From positions 9,311 to 48,980 of the forward strand of contig MU647853.1 of assembly GCA_026770585.1 (NCBI GenBank): a stretch of 39,670 bases of DNA. Direction: 5' to 3'. Shown in pieces: positions 1-38,930 of the stretch (within the stretch, counting starts at the first letter, position 1; each line of letters opens with the position of its first letter). The notes beneath the pieces were generated by a model. That model was given only the letters and a program-made list of their open reading frames with translations, was not told where the DNA came from and made no database searches. A program made the translations under genes and the position numbers. This DNA comes from Baffinella frigidus. Lineage: Eukaryota; Cryptophyceae; Cryptomonadales; Baffinellaceae.

Positions 1-311
1 CGCCAGCGCTCTTGCCGCAGCCAGCCCCACGGCGGAGGCTGGCGCGACTCTTGTCTCTGCCAGCTGGACATGTTTGGATTCTCTGCTTTGGCCAGTGCTG
101 CTTGCCTTAAAGCCCTGCCACCTTCGGGGCGCTGCCATGCTGGAATCCTGACCCTCCAGCGGATCCTGATCTGTCTTTTCCAGCTGCATGCACAGTCTCT
201 TGCGCAGCGGTGACGAGCCGCTGCACCACGTTGTAAGGACTGTAGCAAGCTGACAGCAGGCTAGTGGAGAGTTGGCCACTTATGAAATCCACTAGCTTGA
301 CAGGTATGAGC
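1..311. repeat. Direct repeat copy A (LTR-like), truncated by window start
   Basis: This sequence recurs at 2305-2616 in the same orientation with about seven differences (roughly 98% identical), ending in both copies near GACAGGT(T)ATGAGC. The block could be the LTR of a 2.3-kb non-autonomous element or one boundary of a 2.3-kb tandem satellite. No reverse transcriptase or gag is visible between the copies, and the left limit lies outside the window. Confidence 0.8.
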
Positions 312-18342: not shown

Positions 18343-18360
18343 TTCTGTTGTGTGAGCTAA

Positions 18361-18964
18361 AGGGTTGAGGTGGGGTATATGATCCTAAAGGAGATCCCCG
18401 CAGTTCTCAAAATACGTGGAAAAAAGGCTGGCGAGCTCGGCGGAGACGGGCGGCGGCAGGCGCGCGCGGGGAGCTGCGAGCCTCTACAAGGAGCTTACGG
18501 ACCATCAAGGTACCCCCCCTGGCGCCCTGTGTACTCAGCGCCGCGTCAGCGGCGCCCCCCGCCCCCTCTCACGCACAAATCTGACTTGTGCGATACCCGA
18601 AATCGACGAGCGGGGCGTAGCCATGCGCGGCGCGGGGGGGGGCGGAACAAATCCGGAGGCACCGTTTCTGCGGAGCTGTAGCGTGTGCCGATGAGTTGGC
18701 GCTTGTCCCGAGGCGCTGGCGGCGCTGGCTCAGATTTCGGGCAACTTTCTGTGAGCGCTGGTCACAATGGTCAGACGATGCGCTGAGGGCCGCGGCGCCG
18801 TACCCCTGCGAGATTCTGCGGCGTTATCCTGCCTGCGTGGTCCGGGATGGGTGTGGGTCGGGTTTCACCCCGGGAGCTGCGCCCCTGGGACGCAAAGTGC
18901 GTGTTCCGCTGCACGACTGGTGCTTGCAGGGTTCGGGGGGGGATGTTGAGGTGCGGTGTCGACG
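18361..18964 (+). repeat. Inverted duplication, left arm (~604 bp)
   Basis: Matches the reverse complement of 20288-20890 almost throughout. The core 18400-18760 differs at only one or two positions, with more differences toward both ends. Both arms contain the same open frames (for example one starting MEKRLASSAETGG), but since the DNA itself is duplicated this is no evidence of coding. Confidence 0.95.
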
Positions 18965-20287: not shown

Positions 20288-20890
20288 CGTCGACACCGCA
20301 CCTCGACATTCCCCCCCGAACCCTTCAATCACCATCCGTGCAGCGGAACACGCACTTTGCGTCCCAGGGGCGCAGCTCCCGGGGTGAAACCCGACCCACA
20401 CCCATCCCGGACCACGCAGGCAGGATAACGCCGCAGAAGTTCGCAGGGGCACGGCGCTGCGGCCCTAAGCGCGTCGTCTGACCATTGTGACCAGCGCTCA
20501 CAGAAAGGTGCCCGAAATCTGAGCCAGCGCCGCCAGCGCCTCGGGACAAGCGCCAACTCATCGGCACACGCTACAGCTCCGCAGAAACGGTGCCTCCGGA
20601 TTTGTTCCGCCCCACCCCGCGCCGCGCATGGCTACGCCCCGCTCGTCGATTTCGGGTATCGCACAAGTCAGATTTGTGCGTGAGAGGGGGCGGGGGGCGC
20701 CGCTGACGCGGCGCTGAGTACACAGGGCGCCAGGGGGGGTACCTTGATGGTCCGTAAGCTCCTTGTAGAGGCTCGCAGCTCCCCGCGCGCGCCTGCCGCC
20801 GCCCGTCTCCGCCGAGCTCGCCAGCCTTTTTTCCACGTATTTTGAGAACTGCGGGGAATTCCTTTAGACGCATATACCCCACCCCACCCT
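20288..20890 (-). repeat. Inverted duplication, right arm (~603 bp)
   Basis: Reverse complement of 18361-18964, beginning CGTCGACACCGCACC and ending at CATATACCCCACCCCACCCT. Confidence 0.95.
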
Positions 20891-21942
20891 TTTTGTCGGG
20901 TTCGCGGAACCGGGCCCCGGAGGGGGGCGGGGCCGCGCGCAGCGCTCGCGCTAGGAGCTGTGATCGGGGGGAAGCAGCAACACGCGGGGGAATGGCGCAA
21001 AAGCGGCGGCAGAACCCCCGCGGGCCGCCCCGCTCGGCAAGATCCAATCCTGAAAAATCGATCAACCTGTTTTGGCCGAGGCAACTGGGCCACGGACGGC
21101 GGCAAAGGCCGCGTGTAGGCGGCATGGCGCGGCGCTGGCCATCTGGTAACACCTTGGGCGCCCCCGCAGGGTAGGTGGTGCGCGCGAGGCATCCGCTTGG
21201 GGGGCGGCAGGCTGTTTTTTTCGGATTCAGGAAACGCGTGGAAAGGTGCCCTCCCTTTTGCCTCGAGAACGGCATCATCCCTGCCAGATTATGCTGTGTT
21301 GATGTGACTCGGTGCAAGACACAACCTATGTCGAGCCCCATGCGGGATAGTGGCAACATCTGGGGCAATTCCGGGGTGTAGCGCTGCTGGGGGCGCTCAC
21401 CAAAAATCGTTGGGATTTGGGCTCTTGACAAGTGGGAGCAAGATGGCTAGACTTCGCCTGAGAGGTATGGTCAAGCTGACCGGTTCGCTCGAAATCATGG
21501 CTGCCAAGATTTGTGCCGGGCGCGGGAGAGGGCTGTGCCCCGGAGCGTGCTGCTGGGTGCCCAAATGCAACGAACAGTGGCAGGGAAATTTACCAGAGCA
21601 CACTGAATCTAGGCGACCACGGGTGCATACCGCTGCGTCAGCACCCTCATGTTTGGAGATCTCCTGCAATAGATCAGTATGCACACAGGGGGCACTTTTA
21701 TTGCCGGAGCTAGGGCGCGAAGTTTCCCGGCAGCAGGGCCCGAAGCCAAGTCTCTCCCGCACCCTGCAACCGCTCACGATGTCCCGTGTGGTGAGATTTT
21801 CTACCCACACCGACCGAATTAGACTCGTATGGGGTCGATCTAGCATGCATGATGATCCCCACCGACTGTCGTGGCCATGCGATCCCAGGAGCTACCGTCC
21901 TAACCCCATGCAGCTCCTGTGTTGCAGCTCAAACAACCACAC
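20891..21942. other. Repeat mosaic, no recognised gene
   Basis: Open frames on both strands (for example 21350-21955 plus) lack recognisable domains. Segments are shared with the spacer of the inverted duplication as described there. Confidence 0.4.
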
Positions 21943-22102
21943 TTATCTCAGATAAACACTTTTAAAAGTCGTTTTCCTAAGTCAACTCCCCCACAAATCC
22001 GGCAACTTATGCGTACGGGCTCGCAGAGTAAAGCATAAGTTGACAGATTTGTGGGGGAGTTGACTTAGGAAAACGACTTTTAAAAGTGTTTATCTGAGAT
22101 AA
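21943..22102. mobile_element. 160-bp near-perfect palindrome (MITE-like hairpin)
   Basis: Two ~70-bp arms, from TTATCTCAGATAAACAC to the sequence ending CAACTTATGC and its reverse complement, are separated by a loop of about 20 bp. I count only two mismatches. The termini contain a smaller palindrome TTATCTGAGATAA. ACAC flanks both ends (21939-21942 and 22103-22106) and may be a 4-bp target duplication. Confidence 0.85.
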
Positions 22103-25151: not shown

Positions 25152-25156
25152 AGGTT
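25152..25156. other. Target-site duplication, left copy (AGGTT)
   Basis: AGGTT lies immediately outside the left LTR and again immediately outside the right LTR at 37392-37396. A 5-bp duplication is typical of copia-type integrases. Two bases (TC) separate the left copy from the last base shared by the two LTRs. Confidence 0.8.
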
Positions 25157-25158
25157 TC

Positions 25159-25482
25159 AATAGAGGCCGTAGCCGGGGAAGCAGGGCAGGGGATGCTTTG
25201 CTCACAGAAGAACGACGGGCGACGCAGAAGAGGACACGGATTCGTGTCAGGGAAACGTCAAGGTGCCGGAAAAGGGAGCCTTGAATCCTCGCGGATACTT
25301 GCAGCCCTTTTCCGGCCCCTCCTTCATTAGTCACGTTACTTTTCCTTCCCAAGTTGACTTTCGTAAGTCTCCCCTTCAGAGGGCCGTCCTTAAGGTAATT
25401 CCTTAAGTTGTATAGGAGCCTATATAGCTCCTATGACAGCCTTCTGACCTCATAGCCTAGCGTCCTTATTACTTCGTCTCTC
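25159..25482 (-). repeat. 3' LTR of the copia element
   Basis: 324 bp, matching 37068-37391 with seven substitutions and no length difference. Termini read GAGAGAC...CCTCTATT in the sense direction; the usual TG...CA ends are not present. It contains nested palindromes CTTAAGGTAATTCCTTAAG and ATAGGAGC-CTATATA-GCTCCTAT, the second carrying a TATATA core. Confidence 0.95.
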
Positions 25483-25925: not shown

Positions 25926-26528
25926 ATGGTTTTCACGTTCGATAATTCCAAGGCTCAGCGCTATGAGGTCTCTCTCGAGGCCCACGAGATGGGCGAGGAC
26001 GAGAGCCGTCCTCTCCAGTCTGCCATGGCGGAGGAATGGGGTACTGTCCTGAGGCAGCGGGTAGTCGCGTCGCTGGGGGTCGCACGCTCTGCTCGGAGCC
26101 GCTCGGTTCAGATCGCAAACCGTTCCGCGAGTATCCGTGCCAAGCTTGGAGTGCCTGAGCCGGTCCCGCAGTACTCGCCGATGCTGGGGCGTAGGAAGGT
26201 CTGGTCTTGCCCGATAGATTCTGTTGACGAGGGGTCCTCCGAGGATGAGTCGTTGGTTCGTAGGGTGCGGGCGCGCGAAGCGTCCGAGAGGGGGGATTCC
26301 GACGAGGAGGGGAAGTCCGACGAGGGGGAGGATTCCAGCGAGGGTTCCGACTGCGAGTCCGGGTCGCAGGCCGAGGAGGAGCGCGAGCAGTCTTCCGAGG
26401 AGGAATCAGAGTCCGATTCGGGAGAGGAGTCCGGGGATGACGATGACATAATCTATATGAGGCGGGAGTCGGCTCCGACTCTTGCTCTCCGTAAGTCACT
26501 TATGTCCCAGTTCTATTCTCGGGCCTAA
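25926..26528 (+). CDS. Acidic Ser/Glu-rich protein encoded antisense to gag-pol, 200 aa
   Basis: ATG at 25926 (GCATGG context), TAA ending at 26528. Residues 1-85 look globular and mixed (starts MVFTFDNSKAQRYEVSLEAH); 86-105 hold YSPMLGRRKVW; about 106-178 are a dense acidic tract of Glu, Ser, Asp and Gly (EEEREQSSEEESESDSGEES); the end returns to ordinary sequence (LALRKSLMSQFYSRA). There is no membrane segment or known domain. It sits between RNase H and the 3' LTR, opposite in orientation, with a TATA-like box upstream. TGTAA, a polyadenylation motif in some green algae, follows at about 26558. Acidic tails of this kind occur in histone chaperones and chromatin-binding proteins; any such role is inference. 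The minus frame over the same DNA (25933-26499) is Arg/Pro-rich and is probably the shadow. Confidence 0.6.
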   Translation: MVFTFDNSKAQRYEVSLEAHEMGEDESRPLQSAMAEEWGTVLRQRVVASLGVARSARSRSVQIANRSASIRAKLGVPEPVPQYSPMLGRRKVWSCPIDSVDEGSSEDESLVRRVRAREASERGDSDEEGKSDEGEDSSEGSDCESGSQAEEEREQSSEEESESDSGEESGDDDDIIYMRRESAPTLALRKSLMSQFYSRA

Positions 26529-27112: not shown

Positions 27113-29500
27113 TCACTGCGCTCCAGCTGCTGGGGCGACCCGCGCGCTCAGCGGAGCAAATGGTACGAGGAAGCGCTGTTCAGGACGTTTCATGTCTTTG
27201 GTGCCGTTGTCCCAGGCGGAGATGACGGATCCAAAGAGGACTGCCATAGGGCGAGCCATGAGAGCGATGGCCACTGCCTTGGTCAGGAAGTCTTCTGCCT
27301 GACACGCCGTGGTTACGTAGTACAGAGCGACCGTTCCGCGTGCCACATGCTCGCGCGCGTTGTGAAGGTGAATATCCAGGTGCTTAACACGGCTCTCGTG
27401 AGAGTCGCTGTTGCACAGGCAGATGCATGCTGCATTGCCCTCGAAGATCGGGGTCGGGTCATCTTGCGGGATGTCCAGGAAGTGCAGAATGTGTCGCAAG
27501 TACTGGGCTGTTTTGACACAGTGTGACAGAGCCAGGTACTCGGATTCCGTAGAGGATGAGGCGACCAGCCGTTGCTGAGACGACTTCCAGTCGACGGCCG
27601 CATGGTTGAGGAGGAAGGCGTATCCGGTGTAAGATTTCCTCGTAGCCACATCATTCGCGAGGTCCGCGTCGCAGAATCCGCACAGTTGGTTTTTGTGCAC
27701 CATCTGGGATGTTTCCGCGGTGCGGATGGCTTGACAGAGGACCGGATCCCGACGGTACGTGATGGCCTGAGTCCGAGTGGATACCACGTACCGCAGCACG
27801 TGTTGGAGAGCCATCACGTGCGTGGGGGTCAGAGCGGAGATGTAGCGAGACAGTTGGGAAACTGCGAAAGAAAGGTCCGGGCAGTTGGTGGTTGCCAGCC
27901 AGTTGACGCTTCCTACTCCCGCGCGGTAAGCCTGCTGTTCACGAAGGCCGACGACAGATTCTCCGGTGATCTCACCTGGGTAGAGACGTGTCTTCGGAGT
28001 TTTGATGGGGGTCGTCTCTTTGGCGTCCAGGGGAATGTTGAAGCGCTCTGCCAGGAGCTCGATGTACTTGGTGTTTCCCAGGGTGAGGGTGCCCTTTTCT
28101 TTGTCGTGTTCGACAGTGAGGCCCAGATGAAGCGTGGCATCTCCTTTGCTGGAGAGCTCGTACCGTTCCCCGATTTCGGCGATGAGCTCAGTCCATGCGT
28201 CTTCTGTTGAAGCTACCACCAGGGCGTCATCCACATACATGCTCATGTAGATAATGCCTCGGGTGGTGTGTCGCTTGAAGAGCGTTTTGTCGTACGAGCA
28301 TCGTTCAAAGCCGAGGCTCAGGATGAACGCAGAGTAGTCACCGTAGAATGCCCGGGGACTGTGTGCAAATCCGTAAAGGTTCTTCTTGAGGTGGAAAGCT
28401 TGATCCGGGGGATAGCCCAAGAAGGGAGGTGCTCGTAGCCAAATGTCGGGGAGTCCGGTGCGATCGACAGAGGTGAATGCCGCTGCGACGTCAAATGTTT
28501 TGACGTGCCAGCCCATGGCGCAGGCGATTGCGAGCAGCATCCGAACAACCGTCCAGGGTGCGGTTGGAGTGAAGAGAGGCACGCCCTTTCCAGCAGAGTA
28601 GGTGTCTCCTCGCGCGCAGAAGCGAGCTTTACGGCGGCAAGGCACGCTGTCAGCGTTGCGTTTCATTCGCAGGTTGGTGGTTGATGGTACTATTTTAGCA
28701 CCCGGAGGAGGAGTTGCCAGTTCGATCGTGCCATTCTCCAGCAACGTGTTCATCTCCGAGAGACAGGCTTCCTTCCATTCCTCCCAGTTCGGGCGGCGGC
28801 GAGCCTCGCGGAGGTTGGCTGGCGCATCGGAGAGGCCGAGTGGAACGTTCAGGAGTGCTGACTTGGCCGCTTTGTCCATGGGTTCTTCGTGAACCTCGGG
28901 AGGTGGTTCGGGTCGAGTGGATAAGTCGATCAGGGAGGATGCTGTACACGTCAGGTTGCTGAGAGGAACGGTGTCTGCGGCCATGGGACCCACGTGGATG
29001 GAGGTAGATCCAGGGGATGATGAGTAAGAGTACTCGTCGTCTTGGGTGTGATTGCGAGATAGTTCATCGAGGAGGTTGCTCGAGAAGTCTTCGACTGCCT
29101 CGAGTTGCTCCTCGGTTACCGTGAGACGGGATTCTCGGTGCGCCGCAGCTGGTGGGAGCCACAGCATTGTAGGTGTGTGCACTTTCTTGGGTCCTGCTTC
29201 GGCCGTCGGGTGGTGTGCCAGTTCCGAGACGCCAACCAGTCTCGTGGTTCCGTCTGAGGCCTGTGCCACCAGGCGGTGATGTTCAACCTCCGGGTTGAGG
29301 GCGTCCAGATAAACCGTTGCGCCTACGATGACTGACTGGAGGGTTTCCACCTTGCCCGTGGCTTGGTGCATATCACAGTGGGCATAGGACGCGTTGGTGT
29401 ATGCAGCCGCCAGCGCTTGTTCAGCGATGGCGAACTTGGCCCGTGGAGTAGGGGCGGCCGCCCAGCGAGGGACATGGAGCGTTTCCGTCATGTTGCACAC
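27113..29500 (-). CDS. Copia reverse transcriptase-RNase H, intact 795-codon frame
   Basis: Copies element RNA into DNA and degrades the template. Landmarks by residue: linker 1-230; RT start region EEWKEACLSEMNTLLENGTI around 240-260; first catalytic Asp in FDVAAAF (about 337); KKNLYGFAHSPRAFY (about 372-386); active site YVDD at about 422-425; HLGLTVE after 457; RNase H with FCDADLAND (about 609-617), SYTGYAFLL, WKSSQQ, SSSTESEYLALS (Glu about 653) and KHLDIHLHN (about 706-713). The order and motifs are typical copia. The frame starts out of register with the integrase frame, so a shift lies near 29.62 kb; the listed ATG is simply the first in the open frame. All visible catalytic residues are present. 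Confidence 0.95.
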   Translation of the reverse strand: MCNMTETLHVPRWAAAPTPRAKFAIAEQALAAAYTNASYAHCDMHQATGKVETLQSVIVGATVYLDALNPEVEHHRLVAQASDGTTRLVGVSELAHHPTAEAGPKKVHTPTMLWLPPAAAHRESRLTVTEEQLEAVEDFSSNLLDELSRNHTQDDEYSYSSSPGSTSIHVGPMAADTVPLSNLTCTASSLIDLSTRPEPPPEVHEEPMDKAAKSALLNVPLGLSDAPANLREARRRPNWEEWKEACLSEMNTLLENGTIELATPPPGAKIVPSTTNLRMKRNADSVPCRRKARFCARGDTYSAGKGVPLFTPTAPWTVVRMLLAIACAMGWHVKTFDVAAAFTSVDRTGLPDIWLRAPPFLGYPPDQAFHLKKNLYGFAHSPRAFYGDYSAFILSLGFERCSYDKTLFKRHTTRGIIYMSMYVDDALVVASTEDAWTELIAEIGERYELSSKGDATLHLGLTVEHDKEKGTLTLGNTKYIELLAERFNIPLDAKETTPIKTPKTRLYPGEITGESVVGLREQQAYRAGVGSVNWLATTNCPDLSFAVSQLSRYISALTPTHVMALQHVLRYVVSTRTQAITYRRDPVLCQAIRTAETSQMVHKNQLCGFCDADLANDVATRKSYTGYAFLLNHAAVDWKSSQQRLVASSSTESEYLALSHCVKTAQYLRHILHFLDIPQDDPTPIFEGNAACICLCNSDSHESRVKHLDIHLHNAREHVARGTVALYYVTTACQAEDFLTKAVAIALMARPMAVLFGSVISAWDNGTKDMKRPEQRFLVPFAPLSARVAPAAGAQ

Positions 29501-29613: not shown

Positions 29614-30675
29614 CTAGCGGTTTGCTGCGGGGGGACCGACGCGGTGAGGCAGGCTGGCTTCCGGGCTCAGCCTGGCGTCCGGGTGAGGCAGGCTGGCTTC
29701 CGGGCTCAGCCTGGAGCCCCAGGGTTGAGTGCGAAGAGTGCGGAATCTTTGACGCACCTCAGCGTTCCGCCTGTCACTGGTGGATCTGTTGGTGTCCCGG
29801 CGATCAAGGCTCTCCTGGTGGGGGAGAATCTGACCAGATCCAGCGTGGTTCCGCAGGGCGTAGAGGGCCGCCAGATCCTCTTCGTCCGCGTGCGGCACGG
29901 ATATCTCAAAGGTGTTCTGGGTGTCTTCCTCATGGGTGAGGGCGATGTCCGGGAAGTCGAGGTGCATGTGGGTGAGCTGTCCTCGCAGTTCTTCCCGAGT
30001 GAAGAGCATGGATTCCGAGAGCCCCGGGTTCTCAAACGCCTTGAGGCGTCGGTTTACCCGGCAATACGGAAGCCATGCGCCGTCGACGTTGCCTTTGCGT
30101 ACAACCAGGACTCGGTTGAGTGCCTGGATGTATACGTACATTCCTTTGCGCGATCGACCTGGGGGTGTGATTCCGAGAAACGCACCAGACACGTTGTTGA
30201 CGTCGAGTTTGGTGTGAAGGCCCATGTCTTGCATCCGTTGCTTAGTCAGGTGAATCGTTGTGAACGCACCAAAGATAGCGAACGAGGAGATGTCGTTGGT
30301 CGCGTGAGGGAGGTACAGAGAGAAGGGGCTCTCTCCGATCTTGTCATCCTTGCTGACTGCATTGCTGCGTAGGGGAATGCGGTTGCGGATCTGCGACCAG
30401 TAGGTCAGGACGTGAGGCCAGAACTTGTAGGACATTCCCGAGTGCTGCAGAGTGGAGCGCAGGTATTTGCACGACATGTCTACGCTTTTCTCTGCGCGGC
30501 CATTGGCCCGGGCGTCGTATGGCTCGGACAGGCGCTGAGAGATTCCATGTTTGGTCATCAAGCGGGTGATGTTTCCTTCATCCAACTCGCCAGCCCCATC
30601 CGTTTGGAAAGCTTAGGGGCGGTGTCCGGAGTAATTGAAGTGCCACTGGATGTACGTCTCCAGTTGGGGGGACGA
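29614..30675 (-). pseudogene. Copia integrase, catalytic core C-terminal half and tail (disrupted)
   Basis: Inserts element DNA. The second catalytic Asp is in FQTDGAGEL (about 30590) and the catalytic Glu in NGRAEKSVDM, followed by the copia hallmarks KFWPHVLTYW, IFGAFTTIHLT, KLDVNNVSGAFLG and RKGMYVYIQ. A TAA (30613-30615) sits just before the Asp motif, and the frame changes in a six-G run at 30666-30671. The C-terminal tail has a 39-bp in-frame tandem duplication (29643-29720) giving two copies of RLSPEASLPHPDA/V. The frame ends at 29614 out of register with RT. Confidence 0.85.
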
Positions 30676-31862
30676 GACCGTTCTTGGTAGGCGCGAAAAG
30701 GACCGTGCGGTATGAGGAGAAAGCGTCCACGATGATCAGGCAGTGCTTGTTGCCGTCCATGCTAAGGGGCATTCGGGAAGTTGATGAGATCCATGCACCA
30801 TAGGTCATCCACTTCCAAAACTAGTTCTGGAAGGTCAGAGTCGTTGCTGTCTGGGGTGCGTCCGCGCGTTTCTATGCACGTATGGCATTTCCCAGATAGG
30901 TGGCAGAATTTCAGGGTCTTTGAGGCAAGCCCGACCGTTCTGGCGAGGATCCGTTGGAGGACCTCTTTCGGACAGTGATCAAAGATCAGGTGCATGTAGT
31001 CTGCAGGAGGGAGCCTTCCCAGCATGCACGAGAATATCGATGGGGTGTCCAATGTTGAGACATTTCCGGTGCGCTCCTGGAAGTTGGAGATGGGAAGAAA
31101 AGGGAGTGTCTCGATCCATTTCACTTTAGCTTCACGCCGGGTGTGGCAGGACCCGTTGAAGATGACGGTCGCCTCCCCGGGTTTATCCGTGTCCAGTTGG
31201 AGGGACACCTCCGCAGCGATCAGATCGCTCGTCGAGACGGCGTTGAGACGTGCCGTTGCTGAGTAGAAAGCACCCGGGATGGTAACAGGGTGGGCCTTTC
31301 CGTCCTCAGTGCCCAATTGAATGGTGAGGTCTCCTTTGTGCGAGGCAAACTGAACAGCTCCGTCGGTTGCTCCCCCCCAGGCCAGTGGATTGGGGAGTTC
31401 CACAGTGTTGGTCATGTGCTGCATCGAACACACCAGCGTGATTTGGGTGCCTGTGTCGATGAGATAAATGGATTGAAGGAGATTGTCCGGGAGAGATGCT
31501 GTGCACGCGAGCAGTTTGTCGCACCGATCCACGAGGGTCCCTCCGGGAGGGTGTACGAGCGGAGGGGGTTCAGCAGAGTGGTGTCCCTCAGGGTCCGGGT
31601 GCCCCTCGGTGGAAAGGGGTACAGAAGCCTCGCTGGCCGGGTGCGAGTCCGTTGGAGAGGTGTCTGGTACGTGATGTTCATAGGCGTGCGGTGCTTTGGA
31701 CGAGCCCGGCGTTGGCAAGGAGGTGTGCTGAGGCACCGCGGCTCGCGTCGAGGCTTGCATCGGGACCGCTGTTTCCGGTGGGGCCATTGGGTGTGTGGAC
31801 CCGTCGGTGCTTGCGGTAACGCTCATCGTGGAGGGAGAGGTGTTGTGGGCACTTGCTCCTCA
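30672..31862 (-). pseudogene. Copia aspartic protease and integrase N-terminal half (disrupted)
   Basis: A Pro/Thr/His-rich linker (residues 1-115 of the open frame starting at 31826) leads to protease motif YLIDTGTQITLV (DTG at about 124-126) and the copia-typical IPGAFYSATARLNAVSTSDL. Integrase zinc-binding residues follow: His about 279 and 284, then KCHTC (Cys about 314 and 317), and the first catalytic Asp in WCMDLINFP. The frame breaks at about 30.77 kb and continues in another frame (SMDGNKHCLIIVDAFSSY) to about 30.67 kb. Upstream, a single TGA (31860-31862) separates it in the same frame from the zinc-knuckle/membrane ORF. Confidence 0.9.
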
Positions 31863-33239
31863 AAGGAGTGTTAGGATGAACATCAGAGCCATGATGTAGG
31901 CTCGGCGAGGGATTTTTGGAGGTTTGATCGGAGAGGCGTGTGCAGCGCTGTGGATGCGCAGACACATGTGATGTGCGAACATCTGTATCGCGAGGAAGAT
32001 CCCCAGTGGCCACGCCGTCGCGTGAAGATTGGACAGCCCTCCTTCGTTCCAGTCAGAGTTGCTGAAGTGGTCTCTGAGGGAGTAGTTGTTCGAAGGGACG
32101 TTCCACGTGCTCCCGGGGGGTGGAGGCGGTGTGAAAGTTGGTGTGGGCAGGTTCAGGAGAAGCGGCGGTTCCGGTGGAGTTGTAGGACCGGTCGGCTGGC
32201 GCAGATGTCTTAGATAAGAGACCCATATGCACCCCAGGATGGCGATGTCGATGGTCGCCATGATGGTGGTCGTGGAGAGGAGGCGCACGAGGCAAAAAAG
32301 TGCGGTGGTCTTGTGGCAGCGATGCAGCAGGAATGGGGACAGGGTAAGTGCGCTCATTGCTGCAGCGAGCATTAGCAGGATTGCCGCGTTGTTGGTGTTG
32401 TTGATGACCGTGCTTGTCGACTGGTGTGCTTGGTACACCCAGGATGGAAGGAAGACAAGGGCGCACTGGTATCTGACTCCGATGAGAGAGGTCATGGTGG
32501 ACACAGTGACCGCAGTGACGATCAGAGACCAGATGCCAACGAGGCTGGGCTCGATGGTCGGAATGTGGTCTGCGAAGTTCTTCGGCATTGCCAGGGTGCC
32601 GGGGACGCTGGCCGTGATGAGAAGGGACGCCAGGAGAGTACACTTGGTGGAGGCACGTCCGTGTCCGATGGTGCGCCTGTGGCCTCCTCCGCGGTCCTTG
32701 TTCTGCCTATCGTTGGGGCGTTCCTTGGTCGGAGGGTGAGGCACCCAGGAGGTGGCGTTCCCAACGTTGGTGTCCTGGAGATCGTTCCTTTCGTGGCTGC
32801 GTCCACGGGAGTCCCAGCGATCTCGGCTCCGAGAGCGGGAGCGGTCACAGGTGCATTTTTTGCGGGGTTTGCGGCACACCTGGCACGTGGAGGGAGACGA
32901 GGGGCGTCCACACTGTTTGGCGGGGCAGTCGTGGTCTGCCCACGTCGTGTCCGGGCCCCACTGGACAGGCTGGTTGCAGTAGATGCAGATCCGGGCTTCG
33001 GTGTTGCCCGTTCTCGCTGCCGGGCCCGGTGTTCCTTTGCGGGCCGGTGATTTGGCGTTGTTATCCAGGAGGTTGGCTGCCATGATCCCCACCTTGGGTG
33101 AAGGGTTGCTCTCCGCGTCGGAGTTCATGCGAAGCTCAACCACACGCCCGAGCCGGTTTATTTCGCGTACCTCTTCACAGAATTTCTGGAGGGTGTACGC
33201 GCCCGGTCCAGTGTATCCTCCCTCGGACAGGATGGGCAT
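31860..33239 (-). CDS. Gag-derived zinc-knuckle, RS and multi-membrane-segment protein, 459-codon frame
   Basis: The N-terminal 80 residues are soluble. A Cys/His cluster follows at about 85-131 (CIYC, then HDCPAKQC, CQVC, KKCTC), then RSRSRSRDRW (about 133-142), as in nucleocapsid regions that bind RNA. From about 199 it becomes strongly hydrophobic. Likely membrane segments are 200-217 (CTLLASLLITASVPGTLAM, also signal-peptide-like), 231-254, 284-306, 312-341 (two short helices or one long), 408-427 and 447-459. A Pro-rich loop (350-376) separates the fourth and fifth. It lies between Gag and protease, and the next frame follows after one in-frame TGA. Copia elements do not normally carry membrane domains here. 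Two upstream in-frame stops (33255, 33312) separate it from the rest of Gag. Confidence 0.75.
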   Translation of the reverse strand: MPILSEGGYTGPGAYTLQKFCEEVREINRLGRVVELRMNSDAESNPSPKVGIMAANLLDNNAKSPARKGTPGPAARTGNTEARICIYCNQPVQWGPDTTWADHDCPAKQCGRPSSPSTCQVCRKPRKKCTCDRSRSRSRDRWDSRGRSHERNDLQDTNVGNATSWVPHPPTKERPNDRQNKDRGGGHRRTIGHGRASTKCTLLASLLITASVPGTLAMPKNFADHIPTIEPSLVGIWSLIVTAVTVSTMTSLIGVRYQCALVFLPSWVYQAHQSTSTVINNTNNAAILLMLAAAMSALTLSPFLLHRCHKTTALFCLVRLLSTTTIMATIDIAILGCIWVSYLRHLRQPTGPTTPPEPPLLLNLPTPTFTPPPPPGSTWNVPSNNYSLRDHFSNSDWNEGGLSNLHATAWPLGIFLAIQMFAHHMCLRIHSAAHASPIKPPKIPRRAYIMALMFILTLL

Positions 33240-33257
33240 GAGCTTGGTTTGGAATTA

Positions 33258-35981
33258 AGTGATGAGGAGTTTGTTGTAGTGTCCGCAGTTCACGTCGATT
33301 GCCAAAGCCACTCAAATGGCGCGTTCCGTGGCGGTGACCAGGAGGTCGGGGACGTGGGCTTTTTGGTCCTTGGGGGCCCGAGCCCAGATTCCCTGAAGGT
33401 GGGCGATTCTGTCGCACGTCTCGTCGGCCAGGATGTTGTTCCGGAGTTGGAGGGCGCCCGTGGAAGTCCCTCTTCAGTTCGAGGACTGACTCCTGGGTGT
33501 TGCGCTGGTCGAGTTGCCAGATTGACACCAGCTGTAGGAGGTACTGCATCGGGAGGTCGTCCGTCGAGTGTCCTTTCTCGAGGTTGCAGAGAGAGCTGCT
33601 GATTCCGACGAAGCTGGATTGAGCAAGGTGTTTCTTGCCGATCCACAGTATGATCATGGCCAGGTTCTCCTCGATAGCCAGATTGAACTGCCACCAGTGC
33701 TTGTCATCCCCGCTGAAGGACTCCATGCTGAGGTGCCCGAGCTGCGCGAGGAACTCCTGTGCTGCGGCATAGAAGGGGGTGTGTTTTTCTTTGAGGAAGA
33801 CATCAGCCCACATCCTTCCCACGGTGGCGCGATACGCTGGGTTGTCGCGGCCATCACTGTCGAAAGTGCCCGGGATGACGTTTTCGAAGATCCGTTTCTT
33901 CATGTTCAGGTAGGGGAAGTTCCGAAGTAGGCCAGTGATATCGACTCCTCCAAACCAGGTTTTGAGAACTGCCTTCAGGTGCTCCACGATGTTGGGAAGG
34001 TCCGTTTTGCTCTGGAAGGGGGACCTTTGGAAGGTCGCAGGGTGCTTTTGCAATGCCTCGCTGGCGTACGAACCAGAGGGATCCGTCCGTGATTCCCAGG
34101 ACGATCGCCGAGGGTGCCGGGTGCCGGGGGCTGCTGCCTGGGTGACAGTTCCGTAGCCCGGGAAGGGGTGCGAGGTGACTGCAGGTACCGAGCCGTACAG
34201 AGACAGACCCTGGGGCTGGTGCCTCTGGACGCTAAGTTTCCATTGGGTTTCGGTCAGGGGTCCGATGCCCGCGAATACTTCGGTAGAGTCGATGAAAACC
34301 TCCAGGGTGTTGTCCAGCCACGCCTCTCCGAACTCGTAGGCTCCGGAGTTCTCCCCGTGGCGAAGGAGGAGTTCCCGTGCCGTGTACTTCAGGGCAGGGT
34401 CGATCGGGTGTGGACGGGTCCGTGACTCGATCGTTGGGTGGTCTTTGGTGTATCCAGTCTCTTACTGAGTGAAGGGGTGGAAGATGAACGTAGGCGCTGC
34501 GGGGCGGATCCACTTGTGTGCTGCTGCGAGGTCACAGCACAGTGTGTGGATGTATCCCACGACCAGTTGAAGCTGGGTGCACAGTTCCGGCTCAAGGGTG
34601 TGGCGCCCGAGCATGGTCCGGAACGTGTGTTCCAGGTCCGCGATGTACGCGGACAGGTGACGGAGCACTGCTTCCTGGTCCCAGCTTTGCCAGAGGCAGT
34701 TCGATCCGTTGGTGAGGGGGTCGTTGACTCCGGCGTTGAAGAAATCCAGCATCACCTCCGTTACGGCGCACATATGGTGAGCGGAGCGATCCCTTTGGTT
34801 GTAAAGGGATGTGAATTTGGTCGGGGCCGGATCGATCGAGTCTCCTTGGGAGGTGGAGGTGATGAGAGCTTCGTACACTCCCTGAAGCACCTCGGAGGGC
34901 AGAACGGTGTGCTGCGGGGGTTCTTGGTCGAGTCCCATGAAGCGGAACGCAGATCCTGCGTTGAGCACGTTGTAGCGCAGCCAATCGTTGTGGGTTGGGA
35001 AGACAGCCGTGATCATTTGTTGCAGGTTGCTGTTGAATCCGTGGTTCCACGTGATGTGTTGCTGGAGTGTTCTGCGGACTGGCGTTTGCGCAGCACAGCG
35101 TTCCACTCCGTGTCGAGGGGATAAAGGATGCGGTTGATTGCCGTGCGATATTCGTCCCAAGCGGTCCGGCACATGCGTGCGAGGAGGTTCGCGTCCCAGT
35201 GGTGGAATTCCGAGGTGCTCGGGGTGGGAATCAGGTAGGCGTTGTCGCTGGAGACGCGCCAGGCTTGGCGTTCCCGGTCCACGAAGAGCGTGTATCTTTC
35301 CAGTGGGGGGCGGTATCCGGCCGCCAGGATGATTGGATGCGCTGGCGGCGGGCCCTGACCTGGAGGTCTTCCGGCCGGCGGATGGGGTTGGAGGAGGTAG
35401 TTCCCAGGTAGGTTTTGGAGTGGGATTCCTCCGTTCTGCTGAGGGGCAGCTCCAGGCTGCTGTTGCGGGCCGCCGTTCTGCAGCAGCCTTGCTCCGTTCT
35501 GCGGCGGTGGTCCTCCGTTCGGTGGTGGCTCGCCGAATTGTCCGGGTGCGTGTGCCGCGCTGCGGAGTCGGGAATCTGCGCAGGGTCGTCCGGACAGAGA
35601 TTCCGATCGCTCTCGGCGGTGGTTGCGCATTGGGGATTCAGCCGAGGGGGCTGGGGACCATTGCTGCCTGCCTCGCTGGGGAGGCTGCGCTTCCTCGATT
35701 TCCTCGGGTCCTGACCAGTACATGTCCAGCGTCAGGCTTCCAGTGGGGAGTCCCATTTCGTGGTTGTAGAGCACGTGTTCGCCGAGGTGGGCGAGGGCGA
35801 TCTCTCTGGAGTGGCTGAGCTCGAATCGTGGTGCGTTGTTCTCCGAGGGGGGGGCGTATCCTCCTGCGGGTCTGTTTGCAGGTGTTGCCCCGCGAGGGGC
35901 GCCTGTCATCCGACGGCGCATGCTGCCGGCTGGTTGTCCGGGTGACGAGGTGCCCACTCGTTGCAGATGATGGCCGCTCAT
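33258..35981 (-). pseudogene. Gag of the copia element (capsid region), disrupted
   Basis: The sense frame starts at 35981 (MSGHHLQRVGTSSPGQPAGS). The first 180 residues are Pro/Gln/Gly/Asn-rich with repeated QNGG units; 200-300 is more ordered (HHWDANLLARMCRTAWDEYR). Near 35.1 kb the frame shifts, and the coding sense continues (LQQHITWNHGFNSNLQQM; VMLDFFNAGVNDPLTNGSN) to a TAA at 34462-34464. The same frame then reopens through WWQFNLAIEENLAMIILW to a second shift near 33.47 kb, after which stops follow. No Ty1-type capsid motif can be named, but position, size and helical character fit a Gag capsid. Confidence 0.7.
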
Positions 35982-37067
35982 GCTGTGCCGCGCCGGTGCT
36001 CAAGAGTGCATGGTTGGGGCGCGCTCCGGTGGATGTCCGGTGAGAGGGAGAGCGGTGTACCTCCCCGTAGGAGGCTTCTCGTGGGTGAAGGACGAGGCGC
36101 TCCGATCCCCGTAGAGCTTTTGCGCGGGGAGAAGGTGCCCGTGAAGACGCCCGTGGTTTGCTGCTCAGAGGAACCTGTTGTGAGAATTTCGTGAAACAGT
36201 TCTGGTTCCGGGGTTGGTGGTGCGGCTCAGACTGACACTACGGCTAGGGGTATTGTCCGTTGCCCTCCCTTATTTTCTGCCCCGTGAAGAGTGAGTACAG
36301 TGTAAAGGACCCCTTGGTCCCCGCACTTCAACCTTACCAAAGAAGATGCCGGCAAAGCATAAGTATCCCCCGTGGCCTTCACGCGCAGACGACTGGCTGT
36401 GGCCCGGTGCAAGGCCGTCCGTCTGTGGCCAGTCCCTATGCCTCGAACTATTGATGGCGGGTCGCGTTGGCGCACGTTTTGATGGGTTCAGTTCGTTGGG
36501 AGCAAGCAATCAACAAGCAAGGCTTCGGTTCTGCCGGCATCAGACCGCCGTCCGGAATCATGCTCTACCAAAAGGTGACCTTCAGTTCTGCCGGCATCAG
36601 GTCGCTGCCCGGAATCATGCTCTATCAGGTCTACAGGGCTTTGGTTCTGCCGGCATCGAATCGCCGTCCGGAATCGTGCTCTATCACATCTACAGGGCTT
36701 TGGTTCTGCCGGCATCAGACTGCCGTCCGGAATCATGCTCTACCAAAAGGAGACCTTCGGTTCTGCCGGCATCAGGTCGCCTCCCGGAATCATGCTCTAT
36801 CAGATCTGCAGGGCTTCGGTTCTGCCGGCATCAGATCGCCGTCCGGAATCGTGCTCTAGCTGCAAGCATGGGTGGGTGGGCGGGAGCGCGGTTGGTCCGC
36901 TTCGAGCTTGGGGCGCGGCGGCAGCTGGGATCGGGTGGGTGGGTGGTCAATCGTTTGTGGATCCGCTGTGGGCGGATCCGCGCCTGTCTCCTTGTGGAGA
37001 TCTGGTCAAGGGCGACGCTGCGCTGTTCTGCTGTGAGCAGGGCTGCGTGGGGGCAGGGCGCTAGCCT
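35982..37067 (-). other. 5' leader of the copia element
   Basis: About 1.1 kb between the 5' LTR and the first Gag ATG, containing the six tandem repeats below. No primer-binding site complementary to a recognised tRNA 3' end could be found next to the LTR (sense sequence AGGCTAGCGCCC). The 297-codon plus frame (36346-37239) runs through the repeats and is an artefact. Confidence 0.6.
36523..36860. repeat. Six tandem 57/59-bp repeats in the retrotransposon leader
   Basis: TTCTGCCGGCATC starts at 36529, 36586, 36645, 36704, 36761 and 36820. Units share CGCC.TCCGGAATC.TGCTCTA. Two sub-types are present: 57 bp ending CCAAAAGG.GACCTTC and 59 bp ending CA..TCTACAGGGCTT. Confidence 0.95.
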
Positions 37068-37391
37068 AATAGAGGCCGTAGCCGGGGAAGCAGGGCAGGG
37101 GATGCTCTGCTCACAGAAGAACGACGGGCGACGCAGAAGAGGACACGGATTCGTGTCAGGGAAACGTCAAGGTGCCGGAAAAGGGAGCCTTGGATCCTCG
37201 CGGATACTTGCAGCCCTTTTCCGGCCCCTCCTTCATTAGTCACGTTACTTTTCCTTCCTAAGTTGACTTTCGTAAGTCTCCCCTTCAGAGGGCCGTCCTT
37301 AAGTTAATTCCTTAAGTTGTATAGGAGCCTAGATAGCTCTTATGACAGCCTTCTGACCTCATAGCCTAGCGTCCTTATTACTTGGTCTCTC
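37068..37391 (-). repeat. 5' LTR of the copia element
   Basis: 324 bp, seven substitutions from the 3' LTR. One changes the sense-strand TATATA inside the hairpin to TATCTA, and another breaks a hairpin base pair, so the promoter-side copy has lost the TATA-like core kept in the 3' copy. Confidence 0.95.
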
Positions 37392-37396
37392 AGGTT
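37392..37396. other. Target-site duplication, right copy (AGGTT)
   Basis: Matches 25152-25156 and directly abuts the outer end of the right LTR. Confidence 0.8.
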
Positions 37397-37799
37397 GGCG
37401 GGGAGCATGGGGGACAGTGTCCAAGGCACACACGAGCTTCTCGAGGGTCAGGCACGTCCTGTCGTTGCAGTGGGCGGGGTCAGCGCGGCTGGTCGGGGCT
37501 ACTTAGCGGCTGTTCTCCCTCTTTGCATGTGCCTCTTGCCAGAACCTCCGCGAGGGAAGACGGGCGGACAGCGAGGCGGAGCCAAGGCACTGACCGAGGC
37601 ACGACCGATTTTGAAAGTGTTAATTACGTCCTGGTGGGGCTGTCGGGTGCCCCGGCGGCGCTTGTTGTGTGCAGGATTCCGTACAACATCATTGAGAATT
37701 CTTCGAATCAACTTCTTCGAATCAACACAGAACTGTTGCCACGCACAGCGGATTTTGGTCCTGTAGCCTATGTATTTTGGTGCTGCTAAGCCCCAAAGC
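37397..37799. other. Flank of the retrotransposon, no recognised gene
   Basis: Plus-strand frames of 123-135 codons overlap here but show no domain. TTCTTCGAATCAAC occurs twice in tandem near 37697-37726. Confidence 0.4.
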
Positions 37800-37809
37800 A
37801 TAACCCTGA

Positions 37810-38050
37810 CCCCTCAAACACCAAACCCCAAACCGCAAACCCCAAACCCTAAACTTCAAACCCTAAACCCTAAACCCTGAACTCTAAACCCTAAACCCTA
37901 AACCTTGAACCCTGAACCCTAAACCCTAAACTCTAAACCCTAAACCCTAAACCCTAAACCCCCAAACTCCAAACCCCAAACCCTGCACCCTAATCCTTAT
38001 ACCCTAAACCCTGAACCCTCAACCCTAAACCCTAAGCCCTAAACCCTGTC
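37810..38050. repeat. Degenerate telomere-type repeats, CCCTAAA strand
   Basis: About 30 copies of CCCTAAA and near variants (CCCCAAA, CCCTGAA). The plant-type heptamer is evident, but it is too degenerate and too internal to be a working chromosome end. Confidence 0.9.
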
Positions 38051-38118
38051 AAGAGTGGCATGTCATAAATGACACAACCCCCCCCAAAGCACCAATTCGA
38101 TCCTAACAAGGTAGGAAC

Positions 38119-38158
38119 CCCCCTCAAACTTTGGAAGGACACTGGGAGGTATGTAAAC
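38119..38158. repeat. Direct repeat copy 1 within the telomere-flanked core
   Basis: CCCCCCTCAAACTTTGGAAG and the following bases up to GGGAGGTA recur at about 38507-38546. Confidence 0.85.
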
Positions 38159-38164
38159 CCCAAC

Positions 38165-38258
38165 CTTCACACCCTAAATCCTAAACCCTAAACCCTAAAC
38201 CCTAAACCCTGAACCCTACACCCTACACCCTAAAAACTGAACCCTAAACCCTGAATGT
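38165..38258. repeat. Second CCCTAAA-strand tract
   Basis: About 12 CCCTAAA-like units in the same orientation as 37810-38050, separated from it by about 115 bp of unique sequence. Confidence 0.85.
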
Positions 38259-38930
38259 CGAGATGCCTTCTGGAGCTGTTTCGAAAAATGCCGTTACAGA
38301 AACAGTTTGTGATGAAAACGACCCGTATTTTTTGGCCCAGGAGCCTGGATTGATTCATTCTGATATGAATCGATCTCTGACTGAGGGATATCGGTCCAGG
38401 ATTGACCATTTCCCATTTTGAAATTACACCTGTTCAGTTGACTGGGAGACTTGCGGGATTAGCACTGTGGTAAGCCCGTAAATATGGTGTGAGGCTGTAG
38501 GGTCGATGAACCCCCCTCAAACTTTGGAAGGACACTGGTAGGTACGAATCCACCACCTGTGCCAAATTTGGTGAGCCAACTGAGCGAATATCCGCCGTTG
38601 CGGGACACCGAAAATCGGTGCACCAGTTGCTAATCTGGTCTTGGCTGCAGTATCTGGTCAATCGACATGTCGGCGGAACCCCTCGAAGTTTGTATGAGCT
38701 GTTTTGTGATTCTGATTGGTAAAAATCATCTCTGCAACACCTTTTGAAGAAACAGGGTTGTCAGAGGACGGGAAAGTGCCCCACATGAGTGTAGTCAACC
38801 GTCTGCGAACGAGAGGGTTTTGGCATGTTCTGGTGATCTGACGGCAAGTGTTGTCCTGATGGGTTGGTCAGGAACCTCCTGACGCGTTCAGACCAGTGTT
38901 TCAAAAGTGATTTTGGGACAGGGGTGCCTA
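38259..38930. other. Core between opposite-strand telomere-type tracts
   Basis: About 670 bp without a gene. It includes the second copy of the 40-bp direct repeat (38507-38546), and a diverged inverted match between about 38450-38492 and 39396-39440 (CGGGCTTACCAC and CACCATA..TACG shared). Confidence 0.5.

What the first reader, a model, noticed from the sequence alone, without database searches (positions are those of the whole stretch)
31860..33239. Multi-pass hydrophobic domain fused between Gag zinc knuckle and protease of a copia element
Seen: one open frame carries a Cys/His cluster and RS tract, then about six hydrophobic segments of 13-30 residues (from residue 199), ending just before a TGA and the in-frame protease ORF. 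Known: copia polyproteins go from nucleocapsid straight to protease, and envelope-like ORFs of sireviruses lie after RT. Inference: the element may have acquired a membrane-anchoring or envelope/viroporin-like module inside gag, possibly for particle assembly at membranes.
Basis: partly seen in the sequence, partly recalled or inferred. Interest (0 to 1): 0.78.

Follow-up and report, generated by a model that had tools for sequence, protein, structure and literature searches.

The report
Membrane module inside a copia polyprotein
A decayed copia-type jumping gene from an unnamed eukaryote carries a string of likely membrane-spanning segments just before its protease; at least one distant relative clearly shares it, which suggests that this branch of the family builds its particles on cell membranes.

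Summary
An open frame of 459 codons (33239-31860, minus strand) has a soluble, Cys- and RS-rich first part. From about residue 197 it becomes a multi-pass hydrophobic module: six segments by hydropathy plus a short last one. The module lies in frame with the DTG protease of a Ty1/copia element (integrase before an RVT_2 reverse transcriptase; 324-bp LTRs, 97.8% alike).

It is not an accident of this copy. Metagenome protein P0027 (protease region 51% identical) aligns with it far beyond shuffles, in this frame only. P0031 has hydrophobic segments at the same place, but its sequence similarity there is weak.

The TGA before the protease is a sense codon in P0028 and P0031, so it is probably a nonsense mutation of this copy.

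Best reading: a clade-specific membrane module of Gag-Pro that inserts the polyprotein into the ER during translation, so particles assemble on membranes; an overt form of the cryptic ER transit of Ty1 Gag. Envelope or fusogen function is untested. Bolder reading: the last segment is an internal signal peptide (A-x-A follows it in three of four sequences) that puts protease and Pol in the ER lumen. Host-genome copies could not be examined.

The parts
37068..37391 (-). 5' LTR of the element (324 bp as aligned)
   Evidence: 97.84% identical to 25159-25482 without gaps
25159..25482 (-). 3' LTR of the element
   Evidence: as above
25152..25156 (.). candidate target-site duplication, left copy
   Evidence: same 5 bases at 37392-37396; two bases lie between it and the aligned LTR start, so borders are not certain
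37392..37396 (.). candidate target-site duplication, right copy
35013..35981 (-). first ORF of the element, 322 aa, proline-rich
   Evidence: no Pfam match above cut-off
34462..35172 (-). ORF of 236 aa, presumed Gag region
   Evidence: no Pfam match above cut-off
33175..34053 (-). ORF of 292 aa, presumed capsid part of Gag (by position), in another frame than the 459-codon ORF
   Evidence: no Pfam match above cut-off
31860..33239 (-). 459-codon ORF of the finding
32847..32987 (-). Cys/His cluster, residues 85-131, not a canonical CCHC
32787..32846 (-). RS tract, residues 132-151
   Evidence: translation
31863..32651 (-). hydrophobic module, residues 197-459
   Evidence: homologous to P0027 N-terminal part
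32586..32645 (-). hydrophobic segment 1 (199-218)
   Evidence: exact borders set by hand
32481..32549 (-). hydrophobic segment 2 (231-253)
   Evidence: borders by hand
32427..32477 (-). hydrophobic segment 3 (255-271), weak
   Evidence: borders by hand
32328..32387 (-). hydrophobic segment 4 (285-304)
   Evidence: borders by hand
32205..32303 (-). hydrophobic segment 5 (313-345), long, one crossing or two
   Evidence: borders by hand
31959..32018 (-). hydrophobic segment 6 (408-427), with the AHHMCLR stretch shared with P0027
   Evidence: borders by hand
31863..31901 (-). last hydrophobic segment (447-459), signal-peptide-like
31860..31862 (-). in-frame TGA; Gly in P0028 and Tyr in P0031 at this place
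30762..31826 (-). protease ORF, 354 aa, with DTG at residues 124-126 and a T/S/P-rich linker before it
   Evidence: identity as protease by motif and position, no curated profile matched
29614..30585 (-). integrase region ORF (part; frame changes before it)
   Evidence: SH3_retrovirus below cut-off (E=0.05); P0027, which has a precomputed integrase domain, aligns at 62% to 30666-30400
27113..29500 (-). copia-type reverse transcriptase ORF
   Evidence: RVT_2 E=5.8e-25

Best explanation
This is a decayed copy of a Ty1/copia LTR retrotransposon of a clade known here only from metagenome proteins. In that clade the Gag-Pro-Pol polyprotein has a built-in multi-pass membrane module between the nucleocapsid-like end of Gag and the protease. 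Mechanism (inferred): as the module leaves the ribosome it is recognised by SRP and inserted into the ER or a related membrane. That anchors the polyprotein, and with it the element RNA bound by the RS- and Cys-rich region, so particles nucleate on a membrane; proteolysis then separates Gag, module and Pol. Shown: the frame, the hydrophobic segments, their place, the in-frame link to the protease in relatives, and homology of the module with P0027. Supported but weaker: conservation in P0031, and an N-inside topology from charges. Inferred only: membrane insertion, assembly site and RNA anchoring.
For: Module and P0027 N-terminal part: local score 101 against a shuffle mean of 35, 0 of 500 as high, and 0 of 1000 with block-wise shuffles that keep the hydrophobic pattern; only the ORF's own frame gives it among the three minus frames (z 11.0 against -0.3 and 2.3). 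P0031: three hydrophobic segments upstream of the protease in one ORF, tblastn alignment unbroken from the sixth segment through the protease, z 3.7 with the last segment and start of the linker included. Mean hydropathy +0.45 in the window, +0.52 in P0027, +0.39 in P0031. Inner loops +7, outer loops -4 under the N-inside model, the three sequons after segment 1 in outer loops. Three copia polyproteins with both knuckle and protease motif have no hydrophobic segment upstream of the protease. Ty1 Gag goes through the ER by SRP (PMC3945221).
Against: P0031 is not significant by sequence over the module alone (14 of 500 plain and 104 of 1000 block shuffles as high). P0027 lacks the last segment in its frame. 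The structure models are poor (pLDDT 43.3 and 53.5), so folding into a membrane is not shown. Composition-keeping shuffles of the module alone reach 4 segments in 26 of 2000. Segment borders were set by hand. No DNA of any relative and no second copy was seen, so no dN/dS. The upstream Gag part is not linked to the module in any relative found.
Confidence: 0.6

Rival explanations
1. The last hydrophobic segment is an internal signal peptide: host signal peptidase cuts after the A-x-A that follows it, so protease, integrase and RT are first made on the lumenal side of the ER, while Gag stays cytosolic and the module in the membrane. Pol must then return to the cytosol, or particles bud into the lumen. 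This is a special case of the best explanation.
For: The last segment is short, follows a basic loop (5 K/R, no D/E in the window), and A-x-A follows at the same place in the window (beyond the TGA), P0028 and P0031. An odd number of crossings with N inside puts the protease outside. Ty1 Gag enters the ER lumen and comes back (PMC3945221).
Against: P0027 shows neither the last segment nor the A-x-A in its frame; window and P0028 are close kin, so the independent cases are two; the crossing count is uncertain; the cleavage rule is recalled and no signal-peptide predictor was at hand; a lumenal Pol would be parted from cytosolic RNA.
Confidence: 0.2
2. The module is an envelope-like, fusogen-like or viroporin-like part that serves transfer between cells or exit from the cell.
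For: Env-less LTR elements of insects use a short transmembrane protein, sORF2, for cell-to-cell transfer (PMC11952523); sireviruses often carry an env-like gene with transmembrane domains (PMC3414828); small ORFs with transmembrane regions occur in rotifer elements (PMC5408684).
Against: Those are separate ORFs; sORF2 has one transmembrane segment and the sirevirus gene lies after RT (recalled). Here the module is multi-pass and joined to the protease. No Pfam match for the ORF, no PDB match by sequence or fold.
Confidence: 0.15
3. The hydrophobic stretch is a captured host membrane-protein fragment or a shifted reading of other DNA, without function in the element.
For: The copy is decayed, with frame changes and stops between Gag and integrase; a weak sub-threshold LtrA match of P0027 (E=0.0099).
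Against: P0027 shares it in the same frame and place; codon-position G+C is coding-like; the LtrA match is far below its cut-off (15.6 against 31.9 bits).
Confidence: 0.05

Closest known systems
Ty1 of yeast (Ty1/copia): SRP-dependent ER transit of Gag
   Same: Copia-type element; a hydrophobic signal near the C-terminal end of Gag is the suggested SRP target (PMC3945221, section 16 read).
   Different: Ty1 Gag lacks a recognisable signal sequence or transmembrane domain, its longest hydrophobic stretch being 12 residues; here six or seven overt segments.
Sirevirus env-like gene (SIRE1 type, plant copia)
   Same: Copia element with transmembrane segments of unknown function (PMC3414828, passages read).
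   Different: Separate env-like gene, placed after RT (recalled); here inside the polyprotein between nucleocapsid-like region and protease.
sORF2 of env-less insect LTR elements (FAST-like)
   Same: Extra membrane protein in an element without a classical Env (PMC11952523, abstract and one section read).
   Different: Short separate ORF with one central transmembrane domain, in insect MDG1-group elements; here multi-pass and fused.
Mouse IAP Gag
   Same: Gag brought to the ER membrane by SRP (as cited in PMC3945221, section 16).
   Different: Retrovirus-like element of mammals; no polytopic module before the protease (recalled).

Membership tests
Ty1/copia LTR retrotransposon (Pseudoviridae) | copia-type reverse transcriptase (RVT_2) | tested here: met
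   E=5.8e-25, 88.7 bits against a cut-off of 31.6
Ty1/copia LTR retrotransposon (Pseudoviridae) | order protease, integrase, RT | tested here: met
   ORF order and alignment of P0027 and P0004 along the window; integrase by its relatives, not by a curated match in the window
Ty1/copia LTR retrotransposon (Pseudoviridae) | paired LTRs and target-site duplication | tested here: met
   324-bp repeats at 97.84%; 5-bp duplication only a candidate
Ty1/copia LTR retrotransposon (Pseudoviridae) | CCHC knuckle in Gag (common, not universal; recalled) | tested here: not met
   none in the three minus frames of 30000-36500
Sirevirus env-like gene | env-like ORF after RT | tested here: not met
   module lies before the protease; the longest ORF between RT and 3' LTR on this strand that was scanned (25936-26499) has no Pfam match
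sORF2/FAST-like fusogen | short separate ORF with a single central transmembrane domain | tested here: not met
   six segments at 1.3 and a frame joined to the protease in relatives
ER-targeted Gag (Ty1-like mechanism) | SRP-dependent membrane targeting | not testable with these tools
   needs translation with microsomes, or fractionation

The most novel reading that the evidence does not exclude
A copia lineage whose Gag-Pro-Pol is a polytopic membrane polyprotein: Gag is held on the cytosolic face, and an internal signal peptide before the protease is cut by host signal peptidase, so Pol starts its life in the ER lumen and the particle is assembled across or into the endomembrane system.
Probability: 0.2. 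Interest if true: 0.85.

Novelty: new variant of a known kind. Interest (0 to 1): 0.58.

Why it matters
How copia-type Gag and its RNA find an assembly site is an open question: in Ty1 the ER is involved, but the targeting signal is unknown (PMC3945221, section 16). A copia clade with an overt membrane module at the corresponding end of Gag would make membrane-directed assembly directly testable. It would also widen the known domain plans of copia elements and offer a possible step between intracellular elements and membrane-linked, virus-like life cycles.

Tried and rejected
Homologues of the whole 459-aa ORF: only itself at E up to 1, among 7155 candidates. DNA of relatives: six scans of viral contigs and two of genome contigs, with RT, protease, ORF and alignments, confirmed none, so the relatives were seen as proteins only. 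Window's own genome: the genome search did not answer in 15 tries. Known families for the module: no Pfam match for the ORF; a sub-threshold LtrA match in P0027 (E=0.0099, 15.6 bits, cut-off 31.9) set aside as shared hydrophobic composition. PDB by sequence: two chance matches at E 0.93 and 0.95; PDB by fold with a poor model of P0031: best E 0.26; the model of the ORF was too poor to search. The three-way alignment of whole proteins misaligned the module and was not used. Considered and rejected: TGA or TAA read as sense in this organism (the 795-codon RT ORF runs without either); programmed readthrough of the TGA (the stop is not kept in P0028 or P0031). A rough insertion-energy scan used a scale recalled from memory with a simplified position weight; it found 8 stretches in the ORF, but composition-keeping shuffles of the module reached 8 or more in 5 of 300, and other ORFs of the element also gave some (RT 7, integrase 1, gag-like 1, 236-aa ORF 1, 322-aa ORF 0), so it discriminates poorly. 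In the motif control P0013 and P0018 had a D[STP]G[AT] match at residues 678 and 494 with two hydrophobic segments upstream each, but no knuckle; I took these matches as chance ones outside the protease and did not check them.

Full report
What is there. On the minus strand of the window lies an LTR retrotransposon between two 324-bp repeats (37391-37068 and 25482-25159; 97.84% identical, no gaps), with a candidate 5-bp target duplication. Its ORFs run, in order, 322 aa (35981-35013), 236 aa (35172-34462), a capsid-like (by position) 292 aa (34053-33175), the 459-codon ORF of the finding (33239-31860), protease (31826-30762), integrase (30585-29614) and reverse transcriptase (29500-27113). The RT is copia type (RVT_2, E=5.8e-25), and integrase before RT is the copia order. 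The integrase is named from its relatives (precomputed domain in P0027 and P0030; 62% identity of P0027 over 89 residues), since the window's ORF had only a sub-threshold match. The protease is named from its DTG motif, place and conservation; no curated profile matched it. The RT groups with six metagenome proteins of 64-76% identity on one side of a branch with 100/100 support in a tree of 25 rows. The host is not known: no tRNA and no Rfam match in the window, and no named close relative.

The copy is decayed. Frames change between the capsid-like ORF and the 459-codon ORF and again between protease and integrase, and there are in-frame stops. With LTRs differing at about 2% this is expected of a copy that has aged since insertion. 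Within the 459-codon ORF no stop interrupts the frame.

The hydrophobic module. Residues 1-198 are hydrophilic (mean -1.15) and carry a Cys/His cluster (C85, C88, H103, C105, C110, C119, C122, C129, C131) and an RS tract; this is not a canonical CCHC knuckle. Residues 199-459 average +0.45, against -0.69 to -0.20 for the gag-like, protease, integrase and RT ORFs. Six segments pass a 19-residue mean of 1.3, four pass 1.6, and a short one ends the ORF (447-459). Whole-protein shuffles reached four segments in 0 of 2000; shuffles of the module alone, which keep its composition, in 26 of 2000. The other five frames of the same DNA average -1.13 to +0.05 and hold 1 to 17 stops. Codon-position G+C in the module (0.53, 0.49, 0.71) resembles that of the other ORFs.

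Relatives. A search with the protease found 6 proteins: the window's own and five others. P0027 (612 aa, 51% identical) and P0031 (405 aa, 48% over 66% of the query) run far enough upstream; both have three hydrophobic segments there, in one ORF with the protease. P0028 (80% over 60%) begins inside the last hydrophobic stretch, which is too short to pass the 19-residue test. P0029 and P0030 begin just before or inside the protease motif and say nothing. The module and P0027 align with a score of 101 (shuffle mean 35; 0 of 500 plain and 0 of 1000 block shuffles as high), and only in the ORF's frame (z 11.0, against -0.3 and 2.3 in the two other minus frames). P0031 is weak by sequence (score 44; 14 of 500 plain and 104 of 1000 block shuffles as high; z 3.7 with the last segment and start of the linker included), though tblastn carries its alignment from the sixth segment through the protease without a break; most of that score is protease. 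P0027 and P0031 do not align with each other over this region beyond chance (139 of 500). Against the reading, P0027 shows no last segment in its frame. Its sequence there resembles another frame of the window over 15 residues, which may mean a frame change in one of the two; this is not settled.

The TGA. Where the window has TGA, P0028 has Gly and P0031 has Tyr. So in these relatives the hydrophobic stretch runs on into the protease linker, and the window's stop is best read as a nonsense mutation, not as a kept signal for readthrough.

Contrast with ordinary copia. Of the 24 proteins of the RT search, three (P0012, P0014, P0019) hold both a CCHC knuckle and a protease motif; by the positions printed, 32 to 38 residues lie between the two, and no hydrophobic segment lies upstream of the protease motif. 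The other 21 lacked one or both motifs and could not be used for this.

Topology (inferred). If the RS region is cytosolic and seven segments cross, the inner loops sum to +7 and the outer to -4, and the three sequons after the first segment fall in outer loops; one more sequon lies before it. The borders were set by hand, one crossing (255-271) is weak and one segment (313-345) is long, so this is a hypothesis. The last segment is short, follows a basic loop and is followed by A-x-A in three of the four sequences that cover it (window, P0028, P0031; not P0027), which looks like a signal peptide (the rule is recalled). AlphaFold2 drew helices at these places, but with low confidence (pLDDT 43.3 for the ORF with 2 rows, 53.5 for P0031 with 6 rows), and there was no fold match for the latter.

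Mechanism. The best-supported reading is membrane-anchored assembly: the module inserts the polyprotein into the ER during translation, and particles nucleate there. Ty1 Gag is the nearest precedent: it is made with SRP, enters the ER lumen and is unstable without that step, yet lacks a recognisable signal (PMC3945221: abstract, passages and section 16 seen). Env-like or fusogen roles remain possible: insect env-less elements use sORF2 (PMC11952523: abstract and one section seen), and sireviruses often have an env-like gene (PMC3414828: passages seen). Neither matches in place or build.

Novelty. Searches of the paper library for copia with envelope-like and transmembrane domain, copia with transmembrane and signal peptide, copia in dinoflagellates, Pseudoviridae with env-like and transmembrane, protist Gag with transmembrane helices, and dinoflagellate copia polyproteins with transmembrane domains listed no title or abstract that describes a copia element with a membrane module between nucleocapsid and protease. 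Of the listed papers only six were opened in part (one of them), one search showed 25 of 33, and the library lacks most subscription journals, so this is weak evidence of absence.

Verdict. A real and unusual domain in a copia clade, clearly shared by one distant relative and probably by a second, with function inferred. Interest 0.58.

Noticed in passing
window 1-311 and 2305-2616: A second direct repeat pair, 97.8% identical over 312 bases, about 2.3 kb apart: possibly a short LTR-type element cut by the window edge.
   Followed up: partly
window 18359-18964 and 20288-20893: Long inverted repeat, 606 nt arms, 96% complementary, 1323 nt apart: possibly a foldback element or an inverted duplication.
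   Followed up: no
window 21943-22102: Near-perfect hairpin, 70-nt arms at 97% with a 20-nt loop.
   Followed up: no
window 37774-38267: Tandem array with steps of mostly 14 (also 15 and 21) nt just outside the 5' LTR.
   Followed up: no
window 36518-36858: Direct repeats in the leader of the element, just inside the 5' LTR.
   Followed up: no
window 25159-25482 and 37068-37391: The LTR ends common to both copies are not TG...CA, unusual for copia elements (the usual ends are recalled; sequence).
   Followed up: partly
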